A stretch of 64,000 nt of DNA from Hirsutella rhossiliensis (taxonomy: Eukaryota > Ascomycota > Sordariomycetes > Hypocreales > Ophiocordycipitaceae). Every line of letters begins with the position of its first letter. The first letter of the stretch is position 1. A model generated the notes under the pieces. That model was given only the letters and a program-made list of their open reading frames with translations. It searched no databases and was not told the origin of the DNA. The stretch is from positions 2,232,001-2,296,000 of the forward strand of contig NW_025408672.1 of the NCBI RefSeq assembly GCF_020360975.1. The letters run 5' to 3'. Shown here piece by piece: positions 4,630 to 50,101 of the stretch. Made by a program: the position numbers and the translations under genes.

Positions 4630-5300
4630 ATATCTAGTTATATACTAAAAAATCGTTCCCGAAAAGCCTTTAAGCGCGCTACTCTTACTAAATATATCGA
4701 CTTAAGTAGAGATCCTACTAATATACTATGTACTCGATACTTTAAGGCAAAGAAGATAAATTATTAGATAGCCGAAAATTCTTCGCGCTATAATAATTAT
4801 ATTACTAGTAGTCGTCCCTATTATAATAGTGTTTTAGTAGCCTCTTCTTATAAGTGTTTTCTAATTCTTTCTATATATAGTAGCTAACGTATTTCTTCTA
4901 GTAACTAAATTATTAGCGGAGTAGTATAGGCTATATTCTAAAGAGGAGGAAGCTAGAGAAGCCTTATTAGAGCTTTAGGTATAGCTTACGAACCTTTAGT
5001 CGTAAATATCTATCGCCGTTAATCGTTTAGCTCGTATCTAGAAGATTTAGAATTATATAAAGGAAAAGAGTTCTAAGTTATTTCGTCGTAGTATTTAAGA
5101 AGTAGATACCGAGGATAGCGTTTTACCTACGCTTAATATATATAAGTATTAAGTAGTAAATAATTTATAATCGTTAGGTATTCCTAATAAGGCAAATTAG
5201 TCCTTATTCGGTATTAGTAAGGAGTTTATAGATCTTAGTCCTTTAATCCCTCTTAAACCTTCTAGTAAAATTATCGAAGTAGAGAGCTATAGTAGGTTAA
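4630..5300 (+). pseudogene. Antisense spliced zinc-cluster gene of B1 (relic)
   Basis: This gene runs opposite to B1 gag-pol, between the chromodomain and the 3' LTR, and its 3' end converges on or slightly overlaps the pol end. Exon 1 starts at an ATA (probably ATG before RIP) near 4630. It carries six cluster positions at codons 4729 (TGT kept), 4738, 4762, 4789, 4798 and 4819. The last five are now TAC/TAT (Tyr), the RIP product of TGY, giving CX2CX7CX8CX2CX6C. That is close to the Zn2Cys6 consensus. A 52-nt intron (4850-4901) has donor ATAAGT (GTAAGT before RIP), branch-like GCTAAC and acceptor CTAG. Its length explains the frame change. Exon 2 opens LTKLLAE and continues into a Glu/Leu-rich helical stretch (EEEAREALLEL), a possible coiled coil. 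Stops are TAG/TAA at probable Gln codons. Function as a DNA-binding regulator is inference. Confidence 0.65.
4850..4901 (+). other. Predicted 52-nt intron in B1 antisense gene
   Basis: The donor ATAAGTG is GTAAGTG with one TpG to TpA change. A branch-like GCTAACG and acceptor TTCTAG follow. Removing 52 nt moves the frame from 1 to 2, exactly where the open translation switches. An intron of almost the same length and with the same signals lies at the equivalent place in B2 (29156-29206). Confidence 0.65.
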
Positions 5301-8300
5301 GTACTTAAGTAGTTCTTAGGTATTTTCCTTTAGTCTATATCCCTTCTACTTAATAAGGTATTCTTATTACTAACCTTATTTTCTTATATCTAGTATTTAT
5401 TCTACTTTATATTCTTAATTATCGTTAACTTTAATTTTTTCTTATAGTTTAGCGTTTTATAGCGCTAGTTTTAATAATAAGATATAAAATATTAGGTATA
5501 TCCGTATTATTATTAGTAGCGAAAGTTTATAGTTAACTTTTAAAATAGTTTTCTTAACCTTAAATAGTCTAAGTTTCTTAAAATCTGTTTTATTACTTAG
5601 TTGTTTTATTTTAATATTTCGTCGTACGAGGTAGACTATATCTCCCTCTTAAAAGATTAGTCCCTATAATCTTTTCCGATTATAGTAAGTAGATATTTAT
5701 TCTCTAATAAATTAAAGTTCTTATTATATTTCTTTATATAATTTTTATAGCTAATCTACTTATAGTATTGCTCGTTCTACTTATAGTCCTTATTAAGTAA
5801 CCTTAAATACTTCTAGGTTATATCTATAATTAGCGTATACTAGTAAGAGCTTAGTTATTTCTATAACTAAGCTATTATAAGCTAGTTATACTATTAGTAG
5901 CTATTTAACTTAATCGTTTTATTCGTAGCTAATATAGTATTATAAATATTATTTAAGCGTTTAATTAAGTCGTTCTATTTATCTATCTATTTATAGGTAA
6001 TAAGCTATACTAAGCTTATATTTTATCCTTAATTATACTATAAGAGCTTACTAAAACTTAACTATAAACGTACTTCCTTTATTAAAGATAATCTCGTTTA
6101 ATAGTCTATAATTACTAATAATAGTTTATAGGAATATATATACTAGCTCTTTTATATTACTTACTTCTTTATATAGTAAAAAGTATCTATACTTCGTTAA
6201 TCTATTAGTAATAATAAATATACTATTATACTTAATATTAGTTATAGGTTCTTTTAATAGTAGTAGCTTTATAATATAGTTAAAAGCTATCGAATCCTAT
6301 AGTTTCTCTAGTACTAATAGCGGTTATAATTCTCTATATAGTTTATATCGTTTAGCTTTACTTCGTATATAAAGTTTATATTCTTTAATAACTTATTATA
6401 CTACTTCTTTAAGCTATAGGGAGTTATATTATCGTTTAATCTATTCTATTATTCTTTAGATTCCTTAGTATTTATATATTAGATATTCGTATATATCTTA
6501 TATAACTTTATCTTATAATTCTAGTAGTATCTAGATTTTATTTTTATATATTAGAACTTTTAAATATTCTATATTATATCCGTTTAGTACTTCGTATTCT
6601 TTTATCTATTTTAGGATCTTTTAATATATTAAGTTATTAGGTTATACTTTAAATATTATATTTAGCTATTATTACTAGTAGTTCCTATTTTCGTTGATTT
6701 CTAGGAGCTATCCTTTCGCTATAAGTGCCCCTATATTATAGTTACTTCGTCGACTAAGGGTATTAGCTCGACCGTTTTCTATTCCTTTTCTATAGATTAT
6801 TTTATAGTCGAATTTTAATAAGTATTCGGCCTATTAGATCTATCGTACGTTTAACTATTATATTATTATAAAGTATAAAATATTCTTATAATCTATATAG
6901 ACCTTAACTTTATACTTACTTTTAAGAAGGTAGTATTAAAATTCCTTAAAAGCTTAAATAATTATAAGGAATTCTTTATCGTAGATAGGGTAATTAAGTT
7001 CTACGCTATATAGCTTTTTCGAATAGAATATAATCGGTCGTAGTCTTTCTTTATTATCTTTTTATCCGATTTATACTCCTAGAGTAAAGTTTAATATATC
7101 GGTTTTAAGTTCGATTTATTATTTTAGATTAAAGGTAGTTAAGACTAGTTCTTATATAATCGTAGTTTTAATATATTTAAAAGCTTCGTTAGCTTTATCG
7201 TCCTATATAAATTCTTTTTCCTTTTTCGTTAAGTTATATAATAGTACTATAATCTTTCCGAAATCTTTAATAAATCGTTAGTAGTAATTTATAAATCCTA
7301 GGAAGCTTTATATATCCTTAACGTTCTTTAGCGTTAGCTATTTTTTAACTAAGTTAATCTTATTTTATTATATTTATATCTCTCTTAATAAGATCGTATT
7401 TTTAAGGAAGTCTACTTCTTATATAGAACTTACTTTTCTTTAGTTTAACTAGTAACTTTATATTCTAAAGTACGCGGAGTACCTTATAAACGTATTTCTT
7501 ATATTCTTTTAGGGTATCTAAGAAGAATAAGATATTATCTAGGTATACTACTATAAAGATATCTAAGTATTTATATAGGATATTATTAATTATCCGTTAA
7601 AAGGTAGCTAGTATATTTATAAGTCTAAATAGTATTACTAGATATTTAAATAGTTTAAATTTCGTCCTAAAGGCTATTATCTATTTATATCCCTTTTTTA
7701 TATATATTAAGTTATATACGCTTTTAATGTTAAGGGCTATAAACTATTTTTTATTATATAGTTAATCTTATAGTTTTAATATAAGCGGTAATAGTATTCG
7801 GTCTATTATTATAATATTATTTAAGTATCTATAGTTAATAACTAGTTATAGCTTACTATTTTTCTTTAAAATAAATATAACTAGGTAGCTTACTTTAGAT
7901 ATTAACGTTTATATATATCCTTTTATAGATTCTTATTAAGGTAGTCGTATAGCGTTTATAGTTACTTTTCGTTTAAGTTATAGATCTTATAGAATACTAG
8001 CGTTATTCTATCCTTAAGATAAATTTTATAGTCTTATTAGTTATATTTAAGTAACCTTATCTTAAGTTCTTCCTTAAAGAGTTTATTATATTTCTAGTAT
8101 TTTAAGGGGATATTCTTTATTCTATCTTATAGGCTTTATTCTTTCTTTTAAGAGCTAGTTTCTCTTAACTTAAGCTCTTTATTAATTTATTTAAGGTCTT
8201 TTCTTAGAGTAGTAATAACTCTTTAGATCTTTATATTATATCCTTTTTTTTATTTATATTAGATACTAAGTTATATAGCTATATTAGTTAGTATATAGGT

Positions 8301-11200
8301 CTTATTAGTTAATTTTATTATATCTACTAGTTTAGTTACTATTTTCGTTTATATTACTAAAGCCTATAATAATTTACTTAAATAGTTATCTTTTTTATTT
8401 TATTTAGTAGCTAAGTTATAGTAAAATTTTACTTTCTTTTAAATCTACTAGTCCTAGAAACTTATATCTTTATTTTAATATAGCTAGCTAGTTTTTTAGT
8501 TATTTAATAGGTTGCTCTCCTATAGCTATAAAAGTCTTAATATAAGGTTATATTCTTTAATATCTATAATATTAAAGTTAACTTATTCGTCGTAGCCTTA
8601 GATATTAATATTAAGGTAATTAATCTTTATATTAATAATTCCGTTATTATAGTTAAAGGCCTCTCCTTTAATATTCGTAAGTTTATATAGATCTTTCTTA
8701 TATCTTTATATAAGTTAGTAACGATTAATAACTCTAAGTAAAATATAATTACTTATCGCGCTATAATTTAAAAGTATATATATATAATATCCTATAATTT
8801 AAATATTTAATACTATTTAGTTACTATAGCTTACCGTTACTATATATAAGGTCCTTAGATCTTATTATATCGTGCTAGTTTATAGCCCTTTTATAAATAG
8901 TATACCTTATTTTTTACTTAGTCTTTATTTATTTTATTTAGGTATTCTTCTTTAATTTATTATTAATATCGTTTCTTTATATTTCTATTATATAGTATTA
9001 TATTAAGGCTTAAAAGACTAATTTCCTATAACTAATTAAAGATTTCTTATTTCTTAATATTATATTATCTATATTATACTACTTTATAGTTAATTATATA
9101 CTATACTTTATAATTCTATTTAAAGTCTACTTCTTATATATAGAACTTACTTTTCTTTAGTTTAACTAATAACTTTATATTTTAAAGTACGCGGAGTACC
9201 TTATAGATATATTCCTTATATTCTTCTAAGGTATCTAAGAAGATTAAGATATTATCTAGGTATACTACTATAAAGATATCTAAGTATTTACGTAGGATAT
9301 TATTAATTATCTATTAAAAGGTAGCTAGTATATTTATAAGTCTAAATAGTATTACTAGATATTTAAATAGTCCGAATTTCGTTTTAAAGGCTATTATTTA
9401 TTTATATTCCTTTTTTATACGTATTAAGTTATAGGCGCCTTTAAGGTTAAAGGCTATAAACTATTTTTTACTATATAGTCGATCTCGTAGTTCTAATATA
9501 AGCGGTAATAGTATTCGGTCCTTTATTATAATATCGTTTAAGCGTCTATAGTTAATAACTAGTTATAGTTTACCGTTTTTCTTTAAAATAAATATAACTA
9601 GGTGGCCTACTTTAGATATTAACGTTTATATATATCCCTTTTATAGATTCTCGTTAAGGTAGTTATATAGCGTTTATAGTTACTTTTCGTTTAGGTTATA
9701 AATCTTATAGAACGTCGGCGTTATTCTATCCTTAAGATAAATTTTATAGTCTTATTAGCTATATTTAAGTAACCCTATCTTAAGTTCTTCCTTAAAGAGT
9801 TTATTATATTTCCGGTATTCTTAGGGGATATTCTTTATTCTATCTTATAGGCTTTATTCTTTCTTTTAAGAGCTAGTTTCTCTTAACTTAAGCTCTTTAT
9901 TAATTTATTTAAGGTCTTTCCTTAAAGTAGCAATAACTCTTTAGATCTTTATATTATATCCTTTATTTTATTTATATTAGATACTAGGTTATATAGCCGT
10001 GTTAGTTAGTATATAGGTCTTATTAGTCGATTTTATTATATCCGCTAGTTCGGTTACTATTTTCGTTTATATTACTAAAGCCCGTAATAATTTACTTAAA
10101 CGGTTATCCTTTTTATCCTATTTAATAGCTAAATTATCGTAAAATTTTACTTTCTTCTAAATCTACTAGTCCTAAAAACTTATCTCTTCGTTTTAATATA
10201 GCTAGCTAGTTTTCTAGTTAATTAGTAGGTTACTCTCCTATAGCTATAGAAGCCCTAATATAAGGTCGTATTCTTTAATATCTATAATATCGAAGTTAAC
10301 TTATTCGTCGTAGCCTTAGATATTAATATTAAGGTAATTAATCTCTATATTAATAATTCCGTTATTATAGTTAAAGGCCTTTCCTTTAATATTCGTAAGT
10401 TTATATAGATCTATCTTATATCTTTATATAAGTTAGTAACGATTAACGACTTTAGGTAAAACGTAATTACTTATCGCGCTATAATCTAAAAGTATATATA
10501 TATAATATCCCGCGATTTAAATATCTAATACTATTTAGTTACTATAGCTTACCGTTACTATATATAGGGTTCTTAGATCTTATTATATCGTGCTAGTTTA
10601 TAGCCCTTTTATAGATAGCGTACCTTATTTTTTACCTAGTCCTTATTTATTTTATTTAGGTATTCTTCTTCGATTTATTATTAATATTATTTCTTTATAT
10701 TTTCGTCGCGTAGTATTATATCGGGGCTTAAGAGACTAATTTCTTATAGCTAATTAAAGATTTCTTATTTCTTAACGCTATATCGTTTATATTATACTAC
10801 TTCGTAGTTAATTATATACCGTGCTTTATAATTCTATTTATTTTTATACTAAAGATTAAGTTTTCGTTCTATATCTTTTTATTTTACGCGTAGTTTATCT
10901 ACGTTAATTTTTCCTTAGTCGAATATAGCTTATAGCCTTTATACGTACTACTAGTAATCTTTTAATATACCGTTATATTATTTATACTATACTTATACTT
11001 TTTTATATTTATAAACTCTATAGTTTAAGTATATATATTTATTATAATCTTCTTTGTTATATTTAATTCGTTATATAAGTCTTTAAAAGATTAATAGTTC
11101 GGATTCCTTAAAGCGAGTAGCGTTATACTATTTCTTTATTTTAGTATATTTATAGATTTTATATATCTTTAAAAGGTATCTCGTTAATAAACCGTAATTA
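5290..11200 (-). pseudogene. B1 pol (protease-RT-RNase H-integrase-chromodomain), with internal duplication
   Basis: On the minus strand the RT box appears twice, at 7531-7548 and 9248-9265, both as VYLDNIL with the second Asp changed to Asn (GAT to AAT, RIP-type). The region 9123-10840 is repeated at 7408-9122, so the protease/RT part is present twice before the frame continues into RNase H. Integrase follows (segment like IITNRLTKYRYFLLYKE near 6190) and then a C-terminal chromodomain (segment like EYKVEQILDIRK with YLIK, about 5290-5425). The chromodomain defines a chromovirus. Stops from lost CpA/TpG occur throughout. Confidence 0.75.
7408..10840. repeat. Tandem duplication of about 1.72 kb inside B1 pol
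   Basis: Unit 1 (7408-9122) and unit 2 (9123-10840) align end to end, starting AAGTCTACTTCTTATATA and ending ATTCTATTTA. They differ by scattered C/T or G/A transitions and a very small indel. Each holds one copy of the mutated RT box. There is no spacer. This is an internal duplication rather than a nested insertion, since no LTRs, inverted repeats or target duplications bound it. Confidence 0.85.
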
Positions 11201-13100
11201 TCGCGGCATTTAAGTAGCGTGCTATAATCGGGTTCTAATAATATAACTTAGTCGTCTAGGTAGCGTTAATCGATTTTCTAGTAATCTAGTTTTATACTTA
11301 GGTAGGGTTTCGAAAGTACTTATCCCTTAAACCTAACTAAGAAGGCGTTATATTATACCTTTATCTAGAAGTATATTATATAATCTAGGTAGACGTATAA
11401 TATCTATAAAATATACTTATAGTACTTATAAGTAAGTAGTATTTATAGATCGTCTTTAAATTCTCCTTATAGTTACTATTCTTATTATAAAGCTATAAAG
11501 GTATCGACTACGGCGATAGCTATAGCGTAGTCTCCTCTATATAGTACCGTTAATATCGAATTAATATAGCTTACTAGTTTTCTATAAGAATTTAAAGCGT
11601 TTATTAGGTTCTAATTTTAAGTATTTCTTTAAATTCTTTAAAGTATAGAGCGTGTTCTCTAATCGTAGTATTCTCCCTTAGTAGCGAGGGTAGTAGTATA
11701 AGTTCGTTCTTATCTTTTATTTCTCTAAGTATTTCTTATTTTTTAGAGCTTATATCGTCGATACTTCGTTATTCCTCTTTAGGTAGTTATCTAAGTTTTA
11801 TAAGTATAAGGGCTATATCTATATCTTCTTTATTATATTATTTATAGACTGCCTATTATTATTATCGATTTTTATTTTATATATCTTCCTAGAATTATTT
11901 ACCGTTCTTCCTAATCTAGTTTTAAGAGACTCCTTTAAGATAAGAGTATTTTAGTTCTACGAATTTAACTTATTTCTATATTTTAAGATCCCTTTATTAT
12001 ATTATTATAAGGGTCTTCTTTAATAGCTTTAAGAACTATCCGGTACTATTCTTATCGCTTAAGTATACTATATATTCGTCGTCGTAGTATATAGTCTAAC
12101 TAAGGAGTTTATACTTTAGTTCCTATCTATTAATAGCGTTTAAGTATTTCTTACCTTTTAAGGCTAGTACTTAGTAGGTTTTCTTCTCCTTATAAGGTTA
12201 TCTATATTCTTTAAAGTAATATCTATATTTCCTATAGTTAAAATACTTTCTTTTACTTTTCTATATTATATTTAGATCTATCCTACTTAGGTTAGTTATA
12301 TAAGCGTAGGTAATAGGAGTTTCGCGCTTTTTTTTATAGTTAGCGCGTCGGTTAAAATTATTCCTATAAGAAGGGTTTTAGTTTCCTCTTCCTTATTTCC
12401 TTTTTTAGCGTCGCGTATACTATCTATCGTTAATTTATACTACTATAGCGATATAGTTTAAGAGGCCGTTAGGTCGATCTTCCTTATAGAGTTCGTCCTT
12501 AACTTCTTCCTTAAGTCTATTATAGAATCGCGATATAAGGGGTTCGTCGTCTTATTTAAGTTTTAAGGTAACTTAATAGAATTTAGTAGTATAGTTTAAT
12601 ACTAAGGTCCTTTATTAAAGTTCTCGAAGTTTCTATTTAGCTTCTCGTTCTTCGTTGGTTATTTTAAATACCTTAGTAATAGCTTCTTCGAATCCTTAGA
12701 AACTAGTAAAGACTTTATCTATTTTACTATTTCGTTATACTAGTTAGTTATCGAGATAGTCCCTTATAATAGGTCTAAACTAAGCGAGTGCTGTTTTAGA
12801 TAAATAATTTCCTACGTAGAGTACCTTTTTAACTAGGTTTAAAAGTTTCGTTAAGTAGAACCGGTAGTAGGCCTTAAGTTAAGTAAGAAAGTCTTAAAGA
12901 GTACTATAAGTACCGTCGAATAGTCTTAGCTACTTTAGTTTAACTGCTTCTCTAAGGTCCCTAACTTATCTATTACCTCCTCCGTTCTTAAGTAACTATA
13001 CCTTATATCGAAGGGTAATAATCTCGCGTATTATATCCTAAGGCGATATAGTAGCTCTAGAGTTAGTTAATCTAGCTTACTATATAGGTATATTAATAGT
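11200..13100 (-). pseudogene. B1 gag relic
   Basis: Minus-strand sequence between the 5' LTR and protease. A CCHC-type zinc knuckle can be read at about 12202-12250 (pattern YFNYRKYRYYFKEY), where Tyr replaces Cys and His as expected from RIP of TGY and CAY. The rest is too degraded for finer domain calls, and the limits are approximate. Confidence 0.55.
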
Positions 13101-13152
13101 TACGATATTACTTAAAGTAACGCGGTATTATATTAAATAAGAGCTTTTAACG

Positions 13153-13602
13153 TATAACGACTAGTATTATTCCTAAGGGATAAACCTATCGAGGGGTTTA
13201 TATTAGTAGATATAAAAAGGCGTGGTCTAAGCAATAATAAGTATATTACGTTAGTAATAAGTCGGAGGTCGTAAACTATAGACTATAACTAAGTAATTAG
13301 AATTAGAGATAGAATCGTAATAAAGATCTATATTAAAAGCTAGAGAGCTATCTATCTAAAGGAGTAAAAGTAGGTAGCTATATATACCTATAGAGACTGT
13401 CCTTAGATTATAGGCCTAGCTATAATCCTTAACGTTAGATCGTATAGAGCGAAGTAATCCTATTAATCCTAGATTACTTAGATCTCTACGATCCCCTCGA
13501 TCCTATATCTATTAAATAGTCGTGCCGACTATTTATCTATTAGACTATGTTACGTGCTTAACGCGGTCGACCGTTAGCGGCCTAGTAGCCGTGGTCGTAA
13601 TA
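13153..13602 (-). repeat. B1 5' LTR
   Basis: This 450-bp direct repeat of 4038-4487 is followed by the CTTTA target duplication (13603-13607), after which the C1 integrase resumes. Confidence 0.9.
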
Positions 13603-15420: not shown

Positions 15421-15976
15421 CGGTAACGAATCCCTATTAAATTACTACTAACTTATTAGTATATTAGTACGCTTAAATATTCTATAACTATATATAAAAT
15501 AGTAAAATAAGAGAATAAGGGAAAACTATTTATACTACCTATTAAATATTATTAAGGAAAATAAAACTAAACTATAACTCTATTAAGACCTTAATAATAA
15601 AGGAGAGAAGGATAGTCGTAACTAAATAAAAGAAAGATAAAACTTATCTATTACTTTTAACTACCTCTCTTCTTTACTAGCGTAGCGGGAACTAACTAAG
15701 GCGCCCCTTCTATTATACTAAATACCTCTAGAAATACTAAAACTACCTTATCCTCCGCTCCTTTCTTATCCTCTATATTAAGACCTATCTCTATTAGTAT
15801 AGTACTTACCTCGGCCTTAGTAAAAAGTAAGGTATATTACTATAAAGTATAGCTTATATCGCTATCGATAAGGTAGAGTTTTAACTAGGATTCCTAGGCC
15901 TAGTACTCCGGGCTTATATAGGTAATATTAAATAAGGGCGCGGGGTTAAAGTAAATAATAAGCTTATAGCGCTTAT

Positions 15977-18900
15977 CGGTGGTGCCCGCAATTGCGTCGT
16001 AATTCACTTAGACCACGTGACCACTTATTGCCCGCAAAACGCCGCCCGTGAAATCGTGTGCAGGACGCCTGATAAGTGCATTTGATAAGTTCCCACCCGA
16101 CTTATCGGGTTTCCGGCCAACCGAGCCCAGACATTCGCCCGTAGGAAGGTTGCCCGATCGACCGAGATGGCCGCGGACGACTCGTACACGGCAGCTGACG
16201 AGCGCGCCCCCGCCCGGAGGGCGGCATCCAGGCGAAGAAGGACGAACAGCCGGCGAACACGACGCGGAGTTACGCGGCGAAGCAGCGGAGTGGAAGGCGC
16301 GTCCCCGGCCGGTCCTCCACTTCGATCCCTGTCACGTACGGCCCCAGGCGGCTAACAGACAAATGCGTATAGGCCTGGTGCCATACGCCTCGGGCTGCAG
16401 CAGACGGCTCGCTCTATAGCTGGCCCGACGGCGAGCTCGTAACGCCGGACAAGCTGGCGGCGTGGCTCAAAGAGGATATCCTGTTACGACGCGTTGTGCC
16501 GCCGCAGAAGAAGAAGCCGCGCGCGCGGGGTAAGATTAGGGGCAACGGCAACGGCGAGGCCGTACAGGTACGGCAACAGCGCGAACAGGAGCAGCTCGAG
16601 GCCGCGGCCATGGCAGAGGCCGAAAGCCTGGCCGAAGCTTTGGAGGTCCCCCTGGCCGAGGCCGCCGAGCTGCTCGCTGACGACCGCGAGGGCTACGTGC
16701 CACCCACAGGCCTCGCGACGGCTGCAGTAGACCTTACCGAAGGGTCTTTGCTTACGAGGGGCACTATCGACGCCTATATCGCGGCCGTTATCGAGCTATG
16801 GAGGCTCCAGGTGGCTCACGGCAACGCGAATACGGAGAATCCCGGGGCGCCGCCGTACGAGGATTCCTTGAGCAACGGGGCCGCCAGCGGGGGAAGCACG
16901 ACCGCGCCTCCTTTAAAGACCGCGGAAGCGACGGGATCCAGGCCGGCTACCTCCGATGAATGGCTTCGGATCCAGGATCTCCTTCTCACTGGCGCCGCGT
17001 ATACGCCGCAAAACCTCCGTACGCGAGTCGACCTCCTCTTCGGCCACTACTACCTCTTACGGGGGGAGAACCGGCGCAAGATGGAGCTTGCAGACCTATC
17101 CCTACTCGACTATCCGCCTTCGGAGGCCCGACCCCTGTGGTTGCCTGGTAAGCCTTTACGGGACGGCAAGCTAAATAAGACGGCGAGGAAGGAGTTTATG
17201 GGCGCGCTCCGGCACAAGGACCCCTTATTCTGTACGCAAGGGCCTAGCACAGCTCTTCTTTGGCGCTGGCACGTCGCCGGCGAACCCCCGTCCTTCCGGC
17301 GCCGTCAGGACTGGTATCGGATCAAGGTCCTCGTCGGGCGGGACCGCGAGCAGGAGCTCGTACCCGACACAGCTACAAGAGACCTGGCGTATCTTCGGCG
17401 CTGCCGGCCTTATCGCGTCGAAGAAGACGCACCTCCCGCGCAGGGTGGGCGCCCAGGACGCGGAGACCCATGGCACGTCGCTCGCCCAGATCTCGCAGGC
17501 CGGCCGCTGGAACCAGAGCGTGCTCTGCCAGGCATATCTTACGCACCTACCGCGGCAGTTCATGCGTATCGTCGCCGGCTTCTCGGCCTCCCCGGGGGAC
17601 TACTTCCTCGCGCGTGCGGCTCACGAACCCCCGTACGTCTTACAAAAGCAGCTGTGGCCGTGGATCGAGGAGTGGGAACCCGCTTTGAGGCGCGCGCGCG
17701 CCGGCAATGCTGGGCAGAAGGCGGTCTCGACGACGACGACCCAGCCGCTGACGGCTTCCTTAAGCTGCGCGGCGCCTGCGTATAGTACTTCTGCAGGACC
17801 TGGCCGTCCTACAGCTCCGCTACCCGTCGCTAGCGTTCTTCGCCTACGCCCCTTTGGCGGGCCCGAGTGGGACGAGTTCGCCGTCGCCGTGCGGTCCACC
17901 GCGGTAGGGGCTATGGAGCCGGTAAGCCTGCTCGTACGACGCGCGCTGCCGGAACTAAGCGGCGTCATAGAGAGCACGCGGGAGGCCCTGTTACAGAATA
18001 GTCAGCGGCTCGCCATCCGGCTTGAGGCCCGGCTGGACGGGATTCAGGGCGGCCTCGATGCCCTCCTCCAGGCAAGGTCCTATCACCTTTACCGGCTACT
18101 TCGGAGCCGGGTCAGCAGAGGCGCTGGCCCCAGCCCGGCCCCGGCCCCGTCAACAGTACCTACCTTGAATCTCAATACAGCTCCGGCCGGCCCCGGCCCC
18201 GCCCCAGAGCCTCTGGTACCAGGCATGCCTATCGTCACAGCCCTGGCAAGGGTCTTTACGGTGGGGACGTCTGGAAGGAGTGGGAGGAAGGGTTTGCAGG
18301 TCAGAAGGCCGTACGGGAGCTGGAAGAGACGTGGGAAGCCGCTGGCGCCGGGGAACGGGGTCAGAGTGCAGTTCTGTCGCCGGAAGGTGATCTGGGACGA
18401 GCTGTTGGCCCGTATGGCGTCCGGCAAATGCAAGGAGGCGGCCGTTGCAGAGCTAGAGCTGTTACGCGCCGGCCGAAGCTTGAACCGACTCGTCGACGAG
18501 CTCAAACAGCGCCGACGGCGGGGCCAGGATCGGGGCCAGGGCCAGGGCCAGATACGGGTACAGGTAGGGACCCCGTGCCCGATGACCCAGGTCCAGGCCC
18601 GGACCAGGTCCAACTCGAGGTCAGGGCCGTCGGGGCGGAGGACCCGGCTGGGAAGCGGACCGCCCTCGTCGACGTAAGCCAGCCGCCTCGTAGAGTCTTT
18701 ATACATATTTATATCCATGTAACTAGACATATTTTTGAGGATCAAAGGGCCGTAGGATCAGTGCATTACTATCTCGCAGTTCCTGTAGCCGAGCCTAGCC
18801 CCCCCATTACCCATTCGCGGCGCTGCAACGCAAATATCTCGACGGACAGTAGCCTATACGGGTGCTCCTCGACCAAACGCGCCGCCGGGTGGATTAGTCC

Positions 18901-19042
18901 CCAGGCCCCGGAATGGCCTCGATTGGGCTGCTGGCCGTGGAGATATTCGCGTGCGCGGCGCCGGGCACTTATCAGATGGTAGATATGTAATCGCATACGA
19001 TTTCCCGAAATTACTCCGCAAATCGACCCCACGATAAGTCCT
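15977..19042 (+). mobile_element. Crypton (tyrosine-recombinase DNA transposon), GC-rich, not RIPped
   Basis: A GC-rich, CpA/TpG-normal island lies inside the RIPped C1 antisense gene. The two flanks join to match C2 at about 34829-34865, so C2 holds the empty site. The hexamer GCTTAT is present once in C2 and on both sides of the island (15971-15976 and 19043-19048). Short direct repeats without long inverted repeats fit Cryptons, which integrate from a circle by recombination. The single gene inside encodes an Ndc10-like tyrosine recombinase with a GCR1_C-type C-terminus, the fungal Crypton arrangement. Insertion postdates RIP of the host element, or the Crypton escaped RIP. Confidence 0.85.
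16250..18677 (+). pseudogene. Crypton tyrosine recombinase (Ndc10/GCR1_C type), frameshifted
   Basis: The N-terminal region reads NTTRSYAAKQ from about 16256. A probable intron follows (about 16299-16372, branch-like GCTAAC, acceptor TATAG), then WCHTP and DGELVTPDKLAAWLKEDIL. The catalytic core has Arg in LLRGENRR (codon 17060), HxxR in THLPRR (His 17430, Arg 17439), Trp in GRW (17508) and Tyr in CQAY (17535). These make the full R-HxxR-W-Y set. GCR1_C-like blocks follow (VWKEWEEGF near 18266; RKVIWDELLARM near 18385). Frame changes are seen near 16843, 16951, 17355, 17680, 17775, 17860 and between 18080 and 18380, many next to G/C runs. The protein is thus broken, or the sequence carries base-call errors. 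No ATG begins the long frame. Confidence 0.75.
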
Positions 19043-20673
19043 GCTTATTAATTAGCGTATAGTAGTCGGTACGCTTAACCTAGTATATTATTAAGCGGTC
19101 GCTAATAAAAGGGTTAAATAAAACTTATAATAGTAGACTTTTATATACTTATAGTCTTAAAGGACTTATAATAAGCCGTCTTAGCGGAGTTAAAAGCCTT
19201 AGCTAAATACTATACTATAATAGTAAGATAGCGCTAATTAGCCTCTTTAAAAATAAGCACGCCCGCGTTTAAGCTATCGTCCTTAGTATCCTTATTACTA
19301 GTCTTTAGCTTATTAAGCTTACGTAAGTACTTAATAATAGTAACTATATCGGCCTAGTTACTAAATATAAAAGTAGCGGCTTTAAAAAGGATTAGCTTAT
19401 TAATTATAATATTTAAAGTTAAAGGGAAACTTACTTAGTTATAGGTCGCGGTATATTTATAGTACTACTTATAGCGCGTTAAGGAAACCCCTAAGAAAAT
19501 ATAGCTAATTAAGAGCACTTTAATAGGCTTAGGCTTAGTTATACTATACTCCTTAACAACCGTCCTAAAATAATATATATACTAGAGCTTATAAAGGATA
19601 ACCCCTTAGGCCCTAACTAAGTAGGCTTTAGCCTTAGATTAAGTACGCTTCTTTATAAGAGTATAACTATCTTATACCGCTACTTAAGTACCCTTATTTC
19701 TAGCGCCGCCGTTCTTAAGTTTATTAGTAAGAGAAGTTAAATTATAGCCGTTTCTATTATTACTATTATCGTTATCTTAGCCCTCGTTTAGCTATGTATT
19801 AAGATAGTCTTAGCCCTTATTTAGCTAGGCCTTATTGTTAATATTAGCCTACTTATTTTAAGGAGCGGCCTAGGCGATAATCTCTTATTAGCTAGAGCCG
19901 CTTTATTAAGATAGAGTAGCTAGGTTATCGGCACTTACCTAGGAGCGCCTAAGTATAATCTCCTCGTTAGTATTAATATCGCTAATAAAGGTAATAGACT
20001 TATAAGTTTCCTAGCTTATAGAGGTAGGCTTATCGATAGCTAGAGTTAAAGTATTTAGCGGGGTAATAGGGGCACGACCCTCGCTAATATTAGGTCTTAG
20101 ACTAAAAGTCTCTTAAGACTAGGATTCCCTTATACCTTTCTTAGCTTTCTTCGTTAAGGGGGAACTAGCGTTACTATAAGACTTTTAGGCTAATCGCTTA
20201 TACTTTAAGAGCAAACCTACTACTACCTACTCCTATATATAGCGTAGGAAATCGGCGTTATAGTTCTTTATCTTTTTTAGCGTAGAAGGTATTATCGTTA
20301 ATAAATCGTTAATAAAAAGTAATAAAAAAGGGTATAAGGGATTAATAAAAAAAGGTATAAAACTCTATAGTAATTATAAGTAAAAGAGTTAAAGAAGAAA
20401 AGAAAATAGAAAAAGTAAGAGATATATATATATACTCTTTATATTATAGTTCCGCGGCCGATATATAAGTAAAACTATAATAGTTACTTAGCGGTAACTA
20501 TTAATATAATAACTATTAGCGTTATAGAGCGTAAACTAACGTATACTTATATAAGCGTATATATATAATATATAACTAAAACTACCTCTCTTCTTAACCG
20601 AATATATATAGTATAGTAAAAGCAATATATATTAAAGATATAGCCGAGACGTCTATAGAAGAGGGGAGATAAT

Positions 20674-29420: not shown

Positions 29421-29555
29421 ATTATTAGTAGTATATCCTAAGGGATAGAAAGGACAGACGAGGAATATATATATACGTAATAAGGGTATATTTATATATA
29501 GCGGCTAAGGCAGTAGTAGGTCTTACGGATAAGATTAAAAGGAGGGGAGATATTA

Positions 29556-33224: not shown

Positions 33225-33605
33225 ATTATCTCCCTTCCTATATAAACGTCTCGGCTATATCTTTAATATATATTACTTTTGCTACGCTATATATATTCGG
33301 TTAAGAAGAGAGGTAGTTTCGGTTATATATCGCGCGTATACGCCTATATAAGTATATATTAGTCTACGCTCTATAACGTTAATAGTTATTATACTAGCGG
33401 TTACCGCTAAGTAACCGTTATAGTATCGCCTATATATTAGCCGCGTAACTATAATATAAAGAGCGTGCGTATATATCTCTTACTTCTTCTATTTTCTTTT
33501 CTTCTTTAACTCTTCCGCTTATAATTACTATAGAGTTTTACGCCTTTTTTTATTAATCCCTTATACCTTTTTATATTACTTTTTATTAACGATTTATTAA
33601 CGATA

Positions 33606-35175
33606 ATACCTTCTACGCTAAAGAAAATAAAGAACTATAACGCTAATTTCCTATACTATATATAGAAGTAGGTAGCGGCGGGTTTGCCCTCGAAGCGTAA
33701 GCGATCGGCCTAGAAGTCTTATAGTAACGCTAGTTCCTTCTTAGCGAAGAAAGCTAAGAAAGGTATAGGGGAATCCTAGTCTTAGGAGACTTCTAGTCTA
33801 GGACCTAACGTTAGCGAGGGTCGTGCCCCCGTTACCCCGCTAAGTACTCTAACTCTAACTACCGATAAGCCTACCTTTATAGGCCTAGAAACTTATAAGT
33901 CTATTACCCCTATTAGCGGTGCTAATACTAGCGAGGAGATCGTGCCTAGGCGCTCCTAAGTAAGTGCCGATAACCCGGCTACTCCGTCTCGATAGGGCAG
34001 CTTTAGCTAATAAGAGATTATCGCCTAGGCCGCTCCTTAGAATAAGTAGGCCGATATTAATAACAAGGCCTAGCCGAACGAGGGCTAAGACTATCCTAAT
34101 ACCTAGCCGAATAAGGGCTAAGATAACGATAACGGTAATAATAGAGATAGCTGCGATCTAACTCCTCTTACTAATAAACCTAAGAATAGCGGCGCTAGAG
34201 ATAAGGGCACCTAGGCGGCAGCACGAGGCGGTCGCGCTCCTACGAAAAAGCGCACCCGATCTAAGGCTAAAGCCCGCCTAGTTAAGGCTTATAGGGTTAT
34301 CCCTCGTAAGCTCTAGTATATATATTATTTTAGGACGGTCGTTAAGGAGTATAATACGACCGAGCCTAAGCTTATTAAGGTGCTCTTAATTAGCTATATT
34401 TTCTTAGGGGTTTCCTTAACGCGCTATAAGTAGTACTATAAACGTGCCGCGACCTATAACTAGGTAAGTTTCCCCTTAACTTTAAATATTACGATTAATA
34501 AGCTAATCCTTCTTAAGGCCGCTACTCTTATATCTAGTAACCGGGCCGATATAGTTACTATCGTTAAGCACCTATACGAGCTTAATAAGCTAAAGACCGG
34601 TAACGAGGATACTAAGGATAATAGCTTAGACGTAGGCGTGCTTATTTTCGAGGAGGCTAATTAGCGCTATCTCGCTATTATAGTATAGTATTTAGCCGAG
34701 GCTTTCGACGCCGCTAAGACGGCCTATCGTAAGTCCTTTAGGACTATAGGTATATAAAAGTCTACTATTATAAGTTTTATCCGACCTTTTTATTAGCGAC
34801 CGCTTAACGATATACTAAGTTAAGCGTGCTAACTACCATACGCTAATTAATAAGCGCCGCGAGCTTATTATTCGCCTTAACCCCGCGCCCCTATTTAATA
34901 TCGCCTATATAAGCCCGGAGTACTAGGCCTAGGAATCTTAGTTAAAACTCTACTTTATCGATAGCGATATAGGCTATACTTCGTAGTAATACGCCTTACT
35001 ATTTACTAAGGCCGAGGTAAGTGCTATACTAATAGAGATAGGTCTCGACGCGGAGGATAAGGAAGGAGCGGAGGATAGGGTGGTTCTAGTATTTCCGGAG
35101 GTATTTAGTATAGCGAAGGGGGCGCCTTAGTTAGTTCCCGCTACGCTAGCGAAGAAGAGGGGTAGTTAGAAGTAA
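33606..35175 (+). pseudogene. Antisense spliced zinc-cluster gene of C2 (relic)
   Basis: Runs opposite to C2 pol, between the chromodomain and the 3' LTR. The start is ATACCTTCTACG (ATG before RIP, 33606) and the stop TAA at 35173-35175. The N-terminus is hydrophilic, with repeated NEGQD-like motifs and a basic patch (KKRTRSKAKARL, about 34250-34285). Cluster positions are codons 34317, 34326, 34350, 34425, 34434 and 34455, all now TAT/TAC, giving CX2CX7C-X24-CX2CX6C. The middle loop is longer than in classical Zn2Cys6 proteins. A 70-nt intron (34750-34819; donor GTATAT, branch-like CTTAAC, acceptor CTAAG) accounts for the frame change before VKRANYH. The C-terminus reads AEDRVVLVFPEVF and ends QLVPATLAKKRGSQKQ if stops are read as Gln. 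Most stops are TAG at likely Gln codons. Role unknown; a DNA-binding regulator is inference. Confidence 0.65.
34750..34819 (+). other. Predicted 70-nt intron in C2 antisense gene
   Basis: Donor GTATAT (GTATGT before RIP), branch-like GCTTAACG, acceptor ACTAAG. Removing it moves frame 0 to frame 1 exactly where the downstream open translation begins. The same sequence is present in C1 on the other strand near 34xxx-equivalent position 19100. Confidence 0.5.
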
Positions 35176-35499
35176 TAAATAGGTCTTATCTTTCTTTTAT
35201 TTAGCTATAACTATCCTTCTCTCTTTTATTATTAGGGCCTTAGTAGAGTTATAGTTTAGTTTTATTTTCCTTAATAATATTTAATAGGTAGTATAGATAG
35301 TTTTCTTTATTCTCCTATTTTACTATTTTATATATAGTTATAAGACGTTTAGGCGTGCCGATATATTAATAAGTTAGTAGCGATTTAGTAGGGATTTATT
35401 ACTAATTTAGTAGCGTCTCCCTACGCTAATAGGTTTCCCTACCTTACTTAGTCTTACGCCTCTTTTTCCCGGTTAAGCGAGTAGTATATTCTTTAATAA

Positions 35500-38400
35500 G
35501 GTCTTAGCTATTCGCTATATTTTTAGCCTCGACCTATTAGTTATACTTAGCTAGCTATCCTTTTTATTTAATAAGGAAAAAGGTATCGCCCTTAGATCTC
35601 TTTCGGTCTTTAATCTCTTAGACTTCTTATTTGCCTTTATCGTCCTCTAAGTTTAGTATCGGTAGGGTTTCGCTATCTTTATAGGTGCCTTTACGCTCCT
35701 TCTATAGCTTTAAGAGACTAATATAGAAAACGTTATAAAGGCGTAAGTACTTCTTAGGGAGTATAAGATAATATACTTACTTTTTAATAGCTTATAGGAC
35801 CCGAAACGGTTTAATATACTTAGGTAAGAGTTTTCTTTTTTTATCTTTAAAGCGTAAGTTCTTTATCGATAATACTATAAGGTCTCCTACTTTTAGTATA
35901 AGCGGTTAGTACCTTAAATCGTAGTATTTCGCTTACGATTTAATAGCCTTTCCCTAGTATTCCTTAAGCCTCTTTCGTAGCTCCTATAGCCTAGTAACTC
36001 TTACTCTTACTTTAGGTACCCCCCTTTAAATAATATCGTCCTCGGTATTAATATAGAAGTTTAGTTAGTAACCTATTAACGCTTCGTTAGGTAATAATCT
36101 AGTTATCGCGTTCTTTATATTATTATATATAAATTAAGTAATATATAGGAGTAACGCTTAGTTAGTTTATTCTAAGTTAGTAAAGCATCTTAAGTAGTAC
36201 TATATAGCTTAGTTTATTTATTCTATTTACCTATCGGTTTATAGGTAAAATACTATCGATAGCCTACGTTTTACTTATAAGATAAAATAGAGATCTAACT
36301 AAAACTTACTTATAAATAAGGACCCTCTATCTAAGATAATGCCTTTTAGAGGTCTATATACTAATTTAACTTAGTAATAGAATAATTCTATTAGCTTTAG
36401 AGCTATTATTATCTTAGAGATAGGAAAGAAGAAGCAATACTTAGTATATCGGTCTACGATTACTAAGATCGTATTAATATCTCGTTTATTATACTATACT
36501 TTAGGTAGACCTAGAGTAAAGTCTATTAATAATTCTTCTTATAGTTATATAGGATATAGTAACGATTATATAGTACTATAGGGGCGATGCCTCTTAGATA
36601 CTATACCTTAATATACTAGGTATAACTAAACGTATTTATTTATATCTTTTGTTATTTTATCCTAGTAGAAGTTCCTCGCTAATAGTTCGCTAGTACGTCG
36701 GGAGCTAAAGTATCCTACTAATAGATCGTTATAAAAGAGCTATATTAGCTCTTACTATAAGGCTACCTCTAGAGGCACTATAATATAACCCTTCTATAGT
36801 AGTAGTCTATCTAGGCGTATTAACTAGAAACCCTTCTCTTTTAAGAAGTCTTTAGTCTCCTTTAGCTTACTAATCGCTACGTTAACCGACTAAGTACGTT
36901 TTAGTAACTCTAGTAATAGTTCTAGAACTTCTACTATATAAACCTTTATATAGTAGGCCGCTTCTTTAGCGGTCTTCCTTAAGAGTAACTATTTATAACT
37001 AGCTCTCTCTTTAGCTTAATCGGCTAATCGTTTAGGTCTCGCGCCTAAATTATTATAGTTTCGCTATAGATAAGCTTATATATTTTCCTTATATAAAGGC
37101 ACTTTACTACGCTTATATTAACTTAAGGTTAAGTATCTCTTTACCTATAAAAACGCCTTATTATTTCTCTATATAAATGCGGTGTTAATAGTAGCTAGCT
37201 TCGCTTATAGCTCCGGTAATAGTTTTATAGATAGGGGCTTCTCGCCCTCGTATCTAGGTATTCTTAATAGCGCGTTTACTAGGTTAGATTTACTTATACG
37301 ATACTTAATTATAAAGTTAAATAGTGCTAAATATATATATTATCTTACTTACCTCCTATTTAAGGAGGTCTAGTATATAAACGTTTAAAGGTAATAGTAG
37401 TCTAATAATACCTTTACTTTATATACTACCCCTTTAACGTAATATCGCTAGTATTTAAATAACTTAATAATAGCGAAGAGTTCTTAGTCTAGAATACTAT
37501 AATTAAGTTCGGCTCTAGTAAACTTCCTTAACTAAAATACGATTAGATAGTAACGCCCTTTATTATGAGGTTAAGAGATAATCCCTACTATCGCGAATTA
37601 CGATATATCTATTTTAATATAAATGCGTCTTTCTAGATCGTAATATCGGAGGAGTAAGGCTCCTTAAAAAGCATCCTTAAGAGCCTAAAACGCTGCCCTT
37701 TTAGTAAGGTTTAGCTCTATACTCCCTAGCTTCTTCCTATTCTTACTCCTCTTTAGTAATATAGTTAAGGGCGCTATAACTCCTAAGTACCTATATATAA
37801 ATCGTTGGTAAAAATTATAGAACCTAAGGAAAACCTAAATATTATAGTAGGTTATAGGTTTAGGCTATTAGGCTATTGCCTCTACCTATTAAGGGTCTAT
37901 CGATACCCTATTAATAGATAATATAAACCTAAGGAACTCGACTAACTATTAATAGAAGATATACTTCGATAGTTTTATATAGAGCTCTATAGCCCTTAGC
38001 CTTTCTATTACTTATCCTAAGTATTTAGTATATTCTTCTCTCGTTTTAGAGTATATAAGGATATCGTCGAGGTAGACTATATAGATTATATCTACGAGCC
38101 CTTTAAGCGCCTAATAGATATAGCTCTAAAACGTAGCTAGTGCGTTAGTAAGTCTAAAGGGCATTACTAGGTATTCGAAATATCTATAACGCGTTCGGAA
38201 AGCGGTCTTTTATTTATCTCCTTCTTAAATTTAAATATATTAATACGTATTCTATATATTAATCTTAGAAAAATACTTAGCTCCTTAATAGCGGTTAATA
38301 ATCTCTAAAATAAAGGGTAAAGGGTACTAATTCTTTTACGTAACCCGGTTAAGTCCTCGGTAGTCTATTTATAGCTATAAGGTACTATCCTTTTTTAAAA

Positions 38401-40500
38401 CGAAAAGGATAGGCGCCCTAGCTAGGCTCTTTAACTCCTAGATTATTTTCCTTTTTATCGCGTCTTAGATCTAGTCGCGTAATACTTAGAGTTCCCTTTA
38501 CGATAAAGGGTAAATCGGTCTATAAGGAGGTTCTATATTAGGGATTAAATTAATTAAGTAATCCGTTCCCTTTCTAGCTAATAATAAATCGGATTTATTA
38601 GCTAAGAAGGTATCTTTAAACTAGTAGAGAGTTAGTAGGATTTCGGCCTATTCTTCTTATAGAATCCCTTTATCTTTATTTTTATCTAATAGTAGGATTA
38701 GCTTAGGATTAAGCGCTATTATATATACCCTTACTTTATTCCTATATTCCTAAAGGAATTTATAGGGATTCTATAGGGTTTCGCTACTTAGTTAATACTT
38801 AAACTACTACTATTATTTCTATAGGATAATATAGATACGTTTATCCTTTAAGGTAGTAACTAATAAAAGGATTAGTACTTAATCGTTTAGCGTTAACTTA
38901 TCGGTACCGATATAGAAATAAGTAATTATCTTTTTAGTGCCCCTTATATCTATTATTTAGAGCGGCACTAACTATACTCTATACTCCCTTACCCTATTAT
39001 TGTTAAGCCCTAATAACTTAGGGTATAATAGCACTACTTATAGCAATCCCTACTATTAGGTAAAGTATACGTTTACGAGGTTAATAGCACCGTAAGTATC
39101 TAAGTATATAGGGACTTTAGTAGGGTTTTGCCTTAATATCGTTATAGGAGTTTTAAGTAACTATCCTATAGGTATTAAGTTTACTAAGGGAGAGGCATTT
39201 ACCCCGATATCTTACCTTTTCCCTATTTTACGGTATTAAGTCTAAGAGTCTTTACTAGGGTTTCTACCTTTAGAGAATTAGTATATTCTATAGATAAGTA
39301 TCCCGGCTTATTATATTAGAAATATATAATTCCTAATTAAGTAAAAGATCCTCTTCCTTAATAACGTCCCTTAGTTCGGCCCCTAGTAGGTATATTGCTA
39401 ACTTACTAGTTATTAGTCGAATTAGTAGTATTTCCTTAACGATTTAGCCTAGCTTATCGGCCTCTTTAATTCCTTCCCCTATATATACCGCCTTAGGGTA
39501 TAGTACTACTTTTATTCTTAGTTCCTTTAAGGGTAAAAGTAATATTAGTACGTCGCCTCTTATTAGTAGTAGTATCCTAATATCGTTAGGCGACTTATAT
39601 AAGCTCTTCCTATTAATAGGTATAGATAGGTATTAAATAGAGGTTAATTTAGTCCCGAAGTTATAGCTCTAGCTTAGCGAAAAATATAAGAGCACGCGCC
39701 TTTTCTAATAGGCGTTTAAAATGCCTCTTTAAGGAGTTAAGGTATAAGCTAAACTCTAAGGGGGACTAGCCTTCTTATTAGCGAGCCTCCTTTAATTACG
39801 TCGCTAATAGTATCTCCTTATTTATAGTATCCTTAATTAAGATAAGTATTTATTCCTTAAAGTATACCTAATCCGTGCTAAATTTAGTTCGGTTAATTAG
39901 TATCTATTCTTTAAGGTATTAGCGCTATCTCGCTTTATAGTCGCTATATATATAATCTACCGTATAAAGGATCTTTATTTTATCGCGATAAAAGCGTTTA
40001 AGCGCTGCCCTAAAGGCGTCCTTTAGATCGTAAGTCTAGTCTAGACGTTTCCGTGTATTAGTAGGTTAGGATAATTAAGCGATATTTTTAATCTTAACCT
40101 CGCTACCGCGACTACCGTCCGATTTAAGGGAGTAGGACTATCGACGCTTCCCCGAATAGATAGCGATAGCACTAGCGCGTTTAGTAATTTCCTCCTCTAA
40201 TTATATAACGCGATCTTATAGGCGTTTCGTCTCCTCTAGCTCCTTAACGCGCGCTTATAGGGCTATAAGCTTTTCCTTATAAGACGGTTATCTTACGCCT
40301 ATAGGTAGCGATATCTTTAATATAGTTATAACGCCGTCTATAGTAGGGGTCTATTCCGAGGATATATCTTCCTATTCTTCGTCTCCCGAGTAGATACTCG
40401 ATATACGTAATAAAGAGGCCTCGACTAGTTAACTACTACGTCGCGCTATAGGAGCGTTACGTAGTCTTCTCTAAGTAGCTATCTCTATTAGGTAACTAAA
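35500..40500 (-). pseudogene. C2 gag-pol (RIPped, RT active site kept)
   Basis: On the minus strand from the right LTR: gag (about 40500-39300, low confidence), protease/RT with VYLDDIL intact (38057-38077), RNase H and thumb to about 37500, integrase (H2C2 region about 36650-36800; core about 36000-36600) and chromodomain at about 35510-35620 (FFLIK segment matching C1 15240). Numerous TAG/TAA stops from Gln/Trp codons. Comparison with C1 shows that the YLDD to YLND change in C1 was independent of C2. Confidence 0.75.
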
Positions 40501-40518
40501 AAGGGAAGCTTTAGAAAT

Positions 40519-40775
40519 TATAAGGGAATACGTATTACGGTACGATTAGTTAGGTAGTAGAGATAGCTAGAGGTACTACGCTATATATATTATATTCTCC
40601 TTATCGTAAGACTAAAGCTTACGAGAAGAGGGATTTCTCCTCTTTAGTCGGAGTAGCGAGTAGTCTATAATATACGAACGGGGTAGGCATGATTCCCTGC
40701 CGATACCCTACTAATATATTAGTACTACGTACCCGAGTGCTTTATTAGCCCGTACCTCTTAGTAGCGCTCTTATA
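40519..40775 (-). repeat. C2 5' LTR
   Basis: 257-bp direct repeat of 32968-33224, followed by target duplication CTATA at 40776-40780. Confidence 0.9.
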
Positions 40776-48446: not shown

Positions 48447-48632
48447 TATTATAGAGTAGGTAAAGGCGTATATATAAGTGCCGTCTATAGGATAATATTA
48501 ATAAGCTATATAGAGCTCTTCTATACGCGGCTAGCCTACCCTTATACTTATAGGATCCGGCCCTCCGTACGTAACTATATAGCTTAGGCCGCGGCCTAAG
48601 CTTATTACCTATAATAGTTAAAGACTCTTATA
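48447..48632 (-). repeat. D 3' LTR
   Basis: 186 bp, starts TATTATAGAGTAGG and ends GACTCTTATA on the + strand. It matches 55238-55423 except for RIP-type transitions. Confidence 0.9.
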
Positions 48633-49139
48633 TAATGCCCTCCCTTAAGCGCGGCGTAGCGCTGCCTTATTAATAGCTCCTATATAATTAAGCCCGTGCC
48701 GCGGGCTCTTTCCTACCCTTTCCGTTAATAGGGCTAGCCCTATTAGCCCTATTATCCCTACGCCTATTAGCCTAGGTAGCTAGGACCTAGCTTTATACTC
48801 GTTAGCCGGCTAGCTATTTAAATAGGGGCGTAACCTATTATATACGCCCCTAGGTAGCCGGTAGCTAGTCCGGACCTACGTAAGCTTTAGGTTGCCCGTC
48901 CCCTTTACCTTAAGTAGTATCCTCTACTAAGGGGTATATAAGGCGGTATCCCTCCTTTCTCCCTTCCCTTTCTTTTCTCCTTTCTTTAACTATAGTAATA
49001 GTATTAATAGGTAAGTTCTACTCTACCTAAAGCGTTAGTCTATTCCTAGCTATATAGGCCGCTCTATTAACGTATACTTATAGTAGTAGCGGTAGTAGTA
49101 ATAATAGCCCTAATAATAATAATAACTTTAACTAATAAG

Positions 49140-50101
49140 TTCCGCGCTATATAGAGCGGGAGGCCGTATTCTATTATACTAACTTCCGCGATAGGTATAT
49201 CCGCCTCTCCCTCTCCTACCTCCTCCTTCTTAGAGCGTATAGAGTCGTTTATCGATGCCGTGCTAGCCGCGGCCAACGATAACTCCGCCGCTACCGCCGC
49301 TCTTGCCCGCGCCGCTGCTACCGCTCCTACCGCCGCCGCCGCCGCCTCTACTACGCTATTCGCTCTTACGTTACCCCTTAGGGTAACGACGCCGTCCCCG
49401 CCGCTACCTATAACGCCCGGCCCCTCGGCCCCCGCCTCTATCTTCGCTACCCTTATAAGTCTATAGTTAGGTAAGCGTAATAGACGTTATCCGCTAACCT
49501 CTTATAGTATAAGCGCTAAGTATAGGCCGGCGCCGCCCGCTCGGCCCCCTATATACGTTATACGTCGTAGGAGCTCGACTACTCTAACTAGGCTAGGCGC
49601 CGCCGCGGCGGTAGCTGCTATTAGTACGCGCGAGCCGGCCGCGCCTATAAGGCGGCGCCTCTTATCCTACTCGCTACGGCGTCGGCTTAGAAGGCCGGCT
49701 TATATAGGTAGGCGCGGGGGGCTACTAAGAAGCGCCTTACCGCCGCCGCCGCCGCCTACCGTAACCTTTACGCCCTCGAGCGATAGGGCCTTATACCTAA
49801 GTAAGTCCTACTCCTTTACTCCCCTATTTCCGCCTCTAATATACCCGGCGCTAGGGATACTACCTCTATCGCCCTATCGGCGGTCCCCTTAGCCGTGCCC
49901 GCCTCTGCTACCGCCGCTGCCCCTACCGCCGCCGCTAGCTACTGCCCCTCTACCCTTAGAGCCGCCGCCGCCGCCGACTAGCTTATAAGCTTTAAGGGCC
50001 GCCTTAGCGCCCTAGAGACCGCCGCTGCTACTAATAAGATAGAGGAGGCCGATAAGGATAACGATAATAAGGATAATAATAATAATAATAATAAGGAATA
50101 A
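49140..50101 (+). pseudogene. Antisense zinc-cluster gene of D (relic)
   Basis: Plus strand, opposite to D pol, between chromodomain and 3' LTR. Exon 1 (to about 49470) encodes an Ala/Pro/Thr-rich region (SFLERIESFIDAVLAAA, about 49225-49275). A candidate 50-nt intron (49471-49520; GTAAGC, GCTAAC, CTAAG) shifts frame 0 to frame 2. The cluster follows at codons 49550, 49559, 49580, 49616 (TGC kept), 49625 and 49646, giving CX2CX6CX11CX2CX6C, which fits the Zn2Cys6 consensus exactly. Five of the six are now TAT/TAC. An Arg-rich loop and an Ala-rich helix follow. The C-terminus has SALETAAATNKIEEADKD and an Asn-rich tail before TAA at 50099-50101. GC content is markedly higher than in D pol. The start is approximate. 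Confidence 0.6.

What the first reader, a model, noticed from the sequence alone, without database searches (positions are those of the whole stretch)
4630..50101. Three chromovirus families each carry an antisense zinc-cluster gene between pol and the 3' LTR
B1 (4630-5300), B2 (28760-29420), C1 (15651-20292), C2 (33606-35175) and D (49140-50101) all have a coding-like relic on the strand opposite gag-pol, at the same place in the element. Each contains six positions, now mostly Tyr (TAY), spaced as a Zn2Cys6-type cluster: CX2CX7CX8CX2CX6C (B1), CX2CX6CX11CX2CX6C (D), CX2CX7C-X24-CX2CX6C (C). TGY to TAY is exactly the change RIP makes. Antisense extra ORFs between pol and the 3' LTR are known in some plant Gypsy elements, but I know of none with a fungal zinc cluster. 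Such a protein could regulate the element or host genes, or guide targeting. The conserved position across three families suggests selection or old ancestry.
Basis: partly seen in the sequence, partly recalled or inferred. Interest (0 to 1): 0.92.

Follow-up and report, generated by a model that had tools for sequence, protein, structure and literature searches.

The report
Fungal jumping gene's backwards zinc-cluster gene
Abundant, mutation-silenced jumping genes in this fungus carry an extra gene on the opposite strand; in the best-studied family it encodes a small protein that looks like a fungal DNA-binding regulator and has relatives in other fungi, so these elements may have carried their own regulator.

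Summary
The antisense gene is real in family B, well supported in D and only suggestive in C. B1, C2 and D are complete elements with pol on the minus strand and an opposite-strand frame between pol and the 3' LTR. In chosen, less-RIPped B2-type copies each of six positions occurs as a Cys codon, spaced CX2CX6CX8CX2CX6C. A profile of such copies found 13 proteins, best E 4.8e-62, seven from named fungi, none characterised. The gene has its own intron and a TATA box. Models of two homologues gave 15 PDB matches, all Zn2Cys6 domains, none significant alone; Pfam Zn_clus stays below its cut-off. B1 and B2 elements share R-U5 and pol end, yet carry antisense products only 36% alike and different U3: an exchanged cassette. 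The architecture has a fungal precedent, Boty/brtn. C shows one of six cysteines and no detected kinship to B. Expression, DNA binding and function are untested; self-regulation is inference.

The parts
4038..13602 (-). Element B1, gag-pol on minus strand; LTRs 4038-4487 and 13153-13602, duplication CTTTA
4299..4474 (-). U3 block that differs between B1-type and B2-type elements
4494..4506 (-). Purine tract next to 3' LTR of B1
4546..4559 (+). TATA-like box of the B1 antisense gene, inside the 4475-4574 island without fixed purine/pyrimidine differences
4630..4849 (+). B1 antisense gene, exon 1 with the six-position cluster (4729-4821)
4850..4901 (+). Predicted 52-nt intron (branch site GCTAAC, acceptor CTAG; donor hit by RIP)
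4902..5308 (+). B1 antisense gene, exon 2 (coiled-coil part to stop)
29207..29420 (-). B2 antisense gene, exon 1 with cluster (coordinates derived by hand)
29156..29206 (-). B2 predicted 51-nt intron (mutated in the window copy; read in less mutated copies)
28794..29155 (-). B2 antisense gene, exon 2
29484..29500 (-). TATA-like box of the B2 antisense gene
32968..40775 (-). Element C2; LTRs 32968-33224 and 40519-40775, duplication CTATA
33606..35175 (+). C2 antisense coding-like frame with one frame change near 34.8 kb; cluster positions 34317-34457
15651..20292 (-). C1 copy of the C antisense frame (strand opposite to C2's), split by a GC-rich insertion at about 16018-19040
48447..55423 (-). 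Element D; LTRs 48447-48632 and 55238-55423, duplication CTCCT
49140..50101 (+). D antisense coding-like region; cluster CX2CX6CX11CX2CX6C at 49550-49648; N-terminal half reads better in another frame

Best explanation
These Gypsy elements carry a true antisense gene between pol and the 3' LTR. In family B it is a TATA-promoted, intron-containing gene for a protein of about 190-210 residues with a Zn2Cys6-type cluster and a long coiled coil, hence most likely a dimeric DNA-binding protein in the manner of HAP1, PUT3 or GAL4 DNA-binding domains. Shown: position, strand, Cys codons at all six positions among natural B2-type copies, homologues in other fungi, splice signals, exchange of gene and U3. 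Inferred: transcription and splicing, zinc and DNA binding, nuclear site, and that the protein acts on the element's own U3 and antisense promoter, as the spliced antisense HBZ protein does in HTLV-1 (HBZ recalled). Because the genomic RNA is the other strand, this intron is not removed during retrotransposition (inference). D probably has a similar gene; C has an antisense gene of unproven type.
For: Homologues: 13 proteins at E 4.8e-62 to 1.2e-15; in 12 aligned homologues three Cys are invariant and three nearly so. Natural copies show Cys codons. Four of five exon stop columns of a B2-type reading align to Gln or Trp in homologues. Intron at the same place and phase in B1 (52 nt) and B2 (51 nt), and joining gives SSL-TKLL / SSL-SRI as in homologues. 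TATA box 65-85 bases upstream, kept in both types. Two AlphaFold models, 13 + 2 PDB matches up to E 10, all of chains I know as Zn2Cys6 domains. High copy number: at least 150 scored places for B2 and C, 40 for B1 and D. Gene flanked by LTR and pol end in 17 of 19 C copies and 29 of 30 B1-type copies (copies were found by the gene itself).
Confidence: 0.68

Rival explanations
1. The antisense gene is a captured host zinc-cluster gene that rides along as a passenger without a job in the element.
For: Host genome has at least 100 Zn_clus matches, so a source is at hand; function untested.
Against: Kept with promoter and intron in at least 150 scored B2-type places and in two diverged versions, with related proteins in several genera; a passenger should decay. 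But all this predates RIP and does not measure selection.
Confidence: 0.13
2. The protein serves integration or chromatin tethering (a targeting or nucleocapsid-like helper) rather than transcription.
Against: The elements already have SH3_Tf2-1/chromodomain-like parts at the integrase end; gene and U3 change together, which fits a regulator better.
Confidence: 0.12
3. What matters is the antisense RNA (dsRNA or interference with sense transcription), not the protein.
For: Antisense promoter-like island is the best kept part of the exchanged stretch; the review discusses this for plants (passages).
Against: Protein pattern is kept across genera.
Confidence: 0.06
4. Chance or a mirror of pol coding.
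For: The Cys/Tyr spacing alone occurs 6 times in the window.
Against: The frames lie outside pol; in ten B2-type copies the gene frame has 6-8 stops against 8-26 in the other five frames; homologues exist.
Confidence: 0.01

Closest known systems
Boty-like retrotransposons with antisense gene brtn (Botrytis cinerea; review also names Sclerotinia sclerotiorum)
   Same: Fungal Gypsy element with chromodomain in pol and an antisense gene; the review lists it among antisense ORFs between pol and 3' LTR (passages of citing papers; the 2011 Virology paper seen only as a cited title)
   Different: Whether BRTN has a zinc cluster, intron or kinship to this family could not be checked
Antisense aORFs of plant Grande, RIRE2, Retand, PvRetro13; TRP28 proteins of Retand
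   Same: Antisense, between pol and 3' LTR, suspected DNA-binding regulators (abstracts and passages)
   Different: Plant, TRP28 or SMC-like domains; no 'zinc' or 'intron' in the Retand paper
Fungal Zn2Cys6 DNA-binding domains (Pho7, HAP1, PUT3, GAL4, AlcR, PPR1)
   Same: Cysteine spacing, downstream coiled coil, only kind of PDB match found
   Different: Below Pfam cut-off; much shorter protein; encoded by a retrotransposon
HBZ of HTLV-1 (recalled)
   Same: Spliced antisense gene from the 3' end of a retroelement, coiled-coil regulator
   Different: No sequence kinship, bZIP and not zinc cluster; analogy only

Membership tests
Antisense ORF between pol and 3' LTR (aORF-3R) | Lies between pol and 3' LTR | tested here: met
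   B1, C2, D:
Antisense ORF between pol and 3' LTR (aORF-3R) | Coding frame antisense to gag-pol | tested here: met
   B: homologues and stop counts. D and C: coding-like frames only
Antisense ORF between pol and 3' LTR (aORF-3R) | Present in most copies of the family | tested here: inconclusive
   Many copies carry it, but copies were found by the gene itself
Antisense ORF between pol and 3' LTR (aORF-3R) | Own antisense transcript | not testable with these tools
   Only TATA box and splice signals
Zn2Cys6 (PF00172) | Six Cys spaced CX2CX6CX5-12CX2CX6-8C (recalled) | tested here: met
   B2-type copies and most homologues; D five of six seen; B1 has X7 at the second gap and three of six seen
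Zn2Cys6 (PF00172) | Score over Pfam's gathering cut-off | tested here: not met
   Best 19.5 bits against 21, 1 of 12 homologues; none in 3 relic readings
Zn2Cys6 (PF00172) | Binuclear-cluster fold | tested here: inconclusive
Zn2Cys6 (PF00172) | Zinc and DNA binding | not testable with these tools
   No experiment
BRTN family | Sequence similarity to BRTN | not tested
   Paper not held; no BRTN sequence at hand
Same family for B, C and D products | Detectable sequence kinship | tested here: inconclusive
   B-D: probability 5.6, E 0.0069 over the cysteines; B-C: probability 0.05, with heavily mutated C copies

The most novel reading that the evidence does not exclude
The antisense zinc-cluster gene and U3 form a swappable regulatory cassette: each version of the protein recognises its own U3 and promoter, and elements change regulatory identity by exchanging gene and U3 together while keeping gag-pol and R-U5. 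That would be a retrotransposon-encoded, lineage-specific transcription factor with its operator, comparable to phage repressor immunity.
Probability: 0.22. Interest if true: 0.87.

Novelty: new variant of a known kind. Interest (0 to 1): 0.6.

Why it matters
The function of antisense genes of LTR retrotransposons is not known according to a 2020 review (passages). Here the product looks like a fungal transcription-factor DNA-binding domain, has homologues in named fungi that are annotated only as hypothetical or uncharacterised, keeps its own intron, and has been exchanged together with U3. The question becomes testable in fungi that hold intact copies. If the annotated homologues also lie in elements, a set of unnamed fungal proteins would be explained as transposon products.

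Tried and rejected
Codon-level test inside family C: 20 copies differ almost only by transitions, so they tell nothing about selection; a first run was wrong because eight minus-strand loci were not turned round. B1-versus-B2 transversions by codon position were 58, 33, 55 with one B2 copy and 58, 32, 55 with another: weak, and the alignment was protein-guided.

Protein database with C copies: 7996 candidates scored, none at E 0.01; with the mutated B2 relic: 187 candidates, none at E 1. Viral contigs: 23 pattern stretches, no relative; prokaryote genomes with P0001: 79 stretches, none. Pfam on four relic read-throughs: none. BFVD: 7 matches, best E 4.2. PDB by sequence: best E 0.11. NCBIfam: only weak scattered matches. 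Kinship of C to B: not detected; B to D inconclusive. An intron in C near 34.75-34.85 kb was looked for; I found no splice pair that fits both frames. A hairpin at the B1 start codon is not significant. Paper searches for a fungal antisense zinc-cluster gene; the fungal antisense gene that came up was Boty/brtn. PMC3248453 (passages) does not use 'antisense'. Most subscription papers are not held.
Full report
Setting. The window lies at G000:C6:2232001-2296000 of an unnamed, fungus-like genome of 81.8 Mb in 40 contigs. It is a nest of elements heavily altered by RIP-like transitions. B1 (4038-13602), C2 (32968-40775) and D (48447-55423) are complete, with LTR pairs, five-base target duplications and a purine tract on the minus strand beside the low-coordinate LTR. 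Pfam finds reverse transcriptase and RNase H on the minus strand in all three. SH3_Tf2-1 is clear in C2 and weak in B1; the chromodomain is below cut-off in both (E 0.07, 0.002), and in D it was only read by eye and not found by Pfam in 50200-51500. A gag match exists in B1 only, E 0.005.

Are the tyrosines mutated cysteines? Twenty C copies differ almost only by transitions and CpA sites are nearly exhausted, so heavily mutated copies cannot answer. Instead of a consensus I looked at natural copies with less RIP. Among 16 B2-type copies each of the six positions is TGY in at least one; in B1-type positions 1-3 and in D positions 1-5 are, the rest are not. These samples were partly chosen for low RIP or by patterns with Cys codons, so the counts are no frequencies. 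In C one position of six is TGC, in 10 of 20 copies, and patterns asking for others found none.

Is it a protein gene? A profile of ten less mutated B2-type readings, stops as X, found 13 proteins among 7993 scored candidates, from E 4.8e-62 to 1.2e-15. Seven come from named fungi: Neoarthrinium moseri, Metarhizium anisopliae, M. acridum, Apiospora rasikravindrae, Cordyceps sp. RAO-2017, Fusarium oxysporum and Verticillium longisporum; the three I looked up are Sordariomycetes of three orders. The eight that carry a name are called hypothetical or uncharacterised, and none of the 13 has a precomputed Pfam domain. In 12 aligned homologues (all but P0003) three Cys are invariant and three at least 90% kept, followed by a coiled-coil region and often a DWNAVF-like tail. 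Some are shortened predictions; P0003 lacks half the cluster, and P0010 and P0013 have Tyr at cluster positions. Of the five exon stop columns in one B2-type reading, four align to Gln or Trp in homologues, the residues whose codons RIP turns into stops; the fifth column is variable (read). P0001 matches the window's own B2 relic at 1.8e-29; all 150 scored own-genome matches (of 335 candidates) hold at least one stop. In ten B2-type copies the gene frame has 6-8 stops and the other five frames 8-26.

Intron. Most homologues lack a stretch present in the B2 relic and in P0001. In B2-type copies it is 51 nt with GTAGGT, GCTAAC and CTAG signals; in B1-type it is 52 nt at the same place and phase, which explains the frame jump. 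Joining gives SSL-SRI and SSL-TKLL, as in P0009 and P0012. Such an intron survives retrotransposition because the genomic RNA is the complementary strand (inference), and it implies a separate antisense transcript. A TATA-like box 65-85 bases upstream of the start is kept in both types.

Cassette exchange. Comparing five B1-type with eight B2-type sequences, columns fixed for purine in one type and pyrimidine in the other number 195 between 4299 and 5261 (my sum of the binned counts; the other 5 of the 200 lie left of the LTR). There is none in the LTR part below 4299, none in 4475-4574, which holds the purine tract and TATA box, and none after 5261 in the columns compared. Single-copy pairs show a few transversions in the pol end. 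The two antisense proteins are 36% identical, whereas the B2 one is 54-57% identical to P0001, P0002, P0005 and P0008 of other sources. Recombination, for example template switching during reverse transcription, is the simplest reading: gene and U3 from one parent, pol end and R-U5 from another. The untouched island needs strong constraint or further crossovers; I cannot tell which.

D and C. D has the CX2CX6CX11CX2CX6C cluster with five positions seen as Cys, but its N-terminal half reads better in another frame, and kinship to B is not established. C has a long coding-like frame in at least 150 places, no database relative and no detected kinship to B. The claim of one old antisense gene shared by three families is therefore open.

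Known? [quoted passage not shown] passages of citing papers; the 2011 paper itself was not readable). The review says that no clear similarities had been described for such products. My paper searches (listed under Tried and rejected) returned no fungal zinc-cluster antisense gene, but the library lacks most subscription papers. Verdict: a real gene in B, a new variant of a known kind, function open.

Noticed in passing
16018-19040: GC-rich (about 0.64), hardly mutated insertion that splits the C1 antisense frame; its frames match NDC10_II (3e-15) and weakly GCR1_C, as in Crypton-like tyrosine-recombinase elements (recalled).
   Followed up: partly
21767-27883: Less mutated Copia-type LTR element (RVT_2 1.3e-22) nested in B2, LTRs near 21767 and 27584.
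   Followed up: partly
42921-45180: DNA transposon relic with DDE_1 (5.5e-13) and weak HTH_Tnp_Tc5 match.
   Followed up: partly
7420-9936: Direct repeats spaced 1717-1718 bases inside B1's pol, a tandem duplication.
   Followed up: no
20689-21056: Three tandem copies of a 122-base unit that resembles part of the C LTR.
   Followed up: no
4475-4650: Island kept between B1- and B2-type elements between U3 and the antisense gene, with a short inverted repeat at the start codon (fold z -1.36, not significant).
   Followed up: partly
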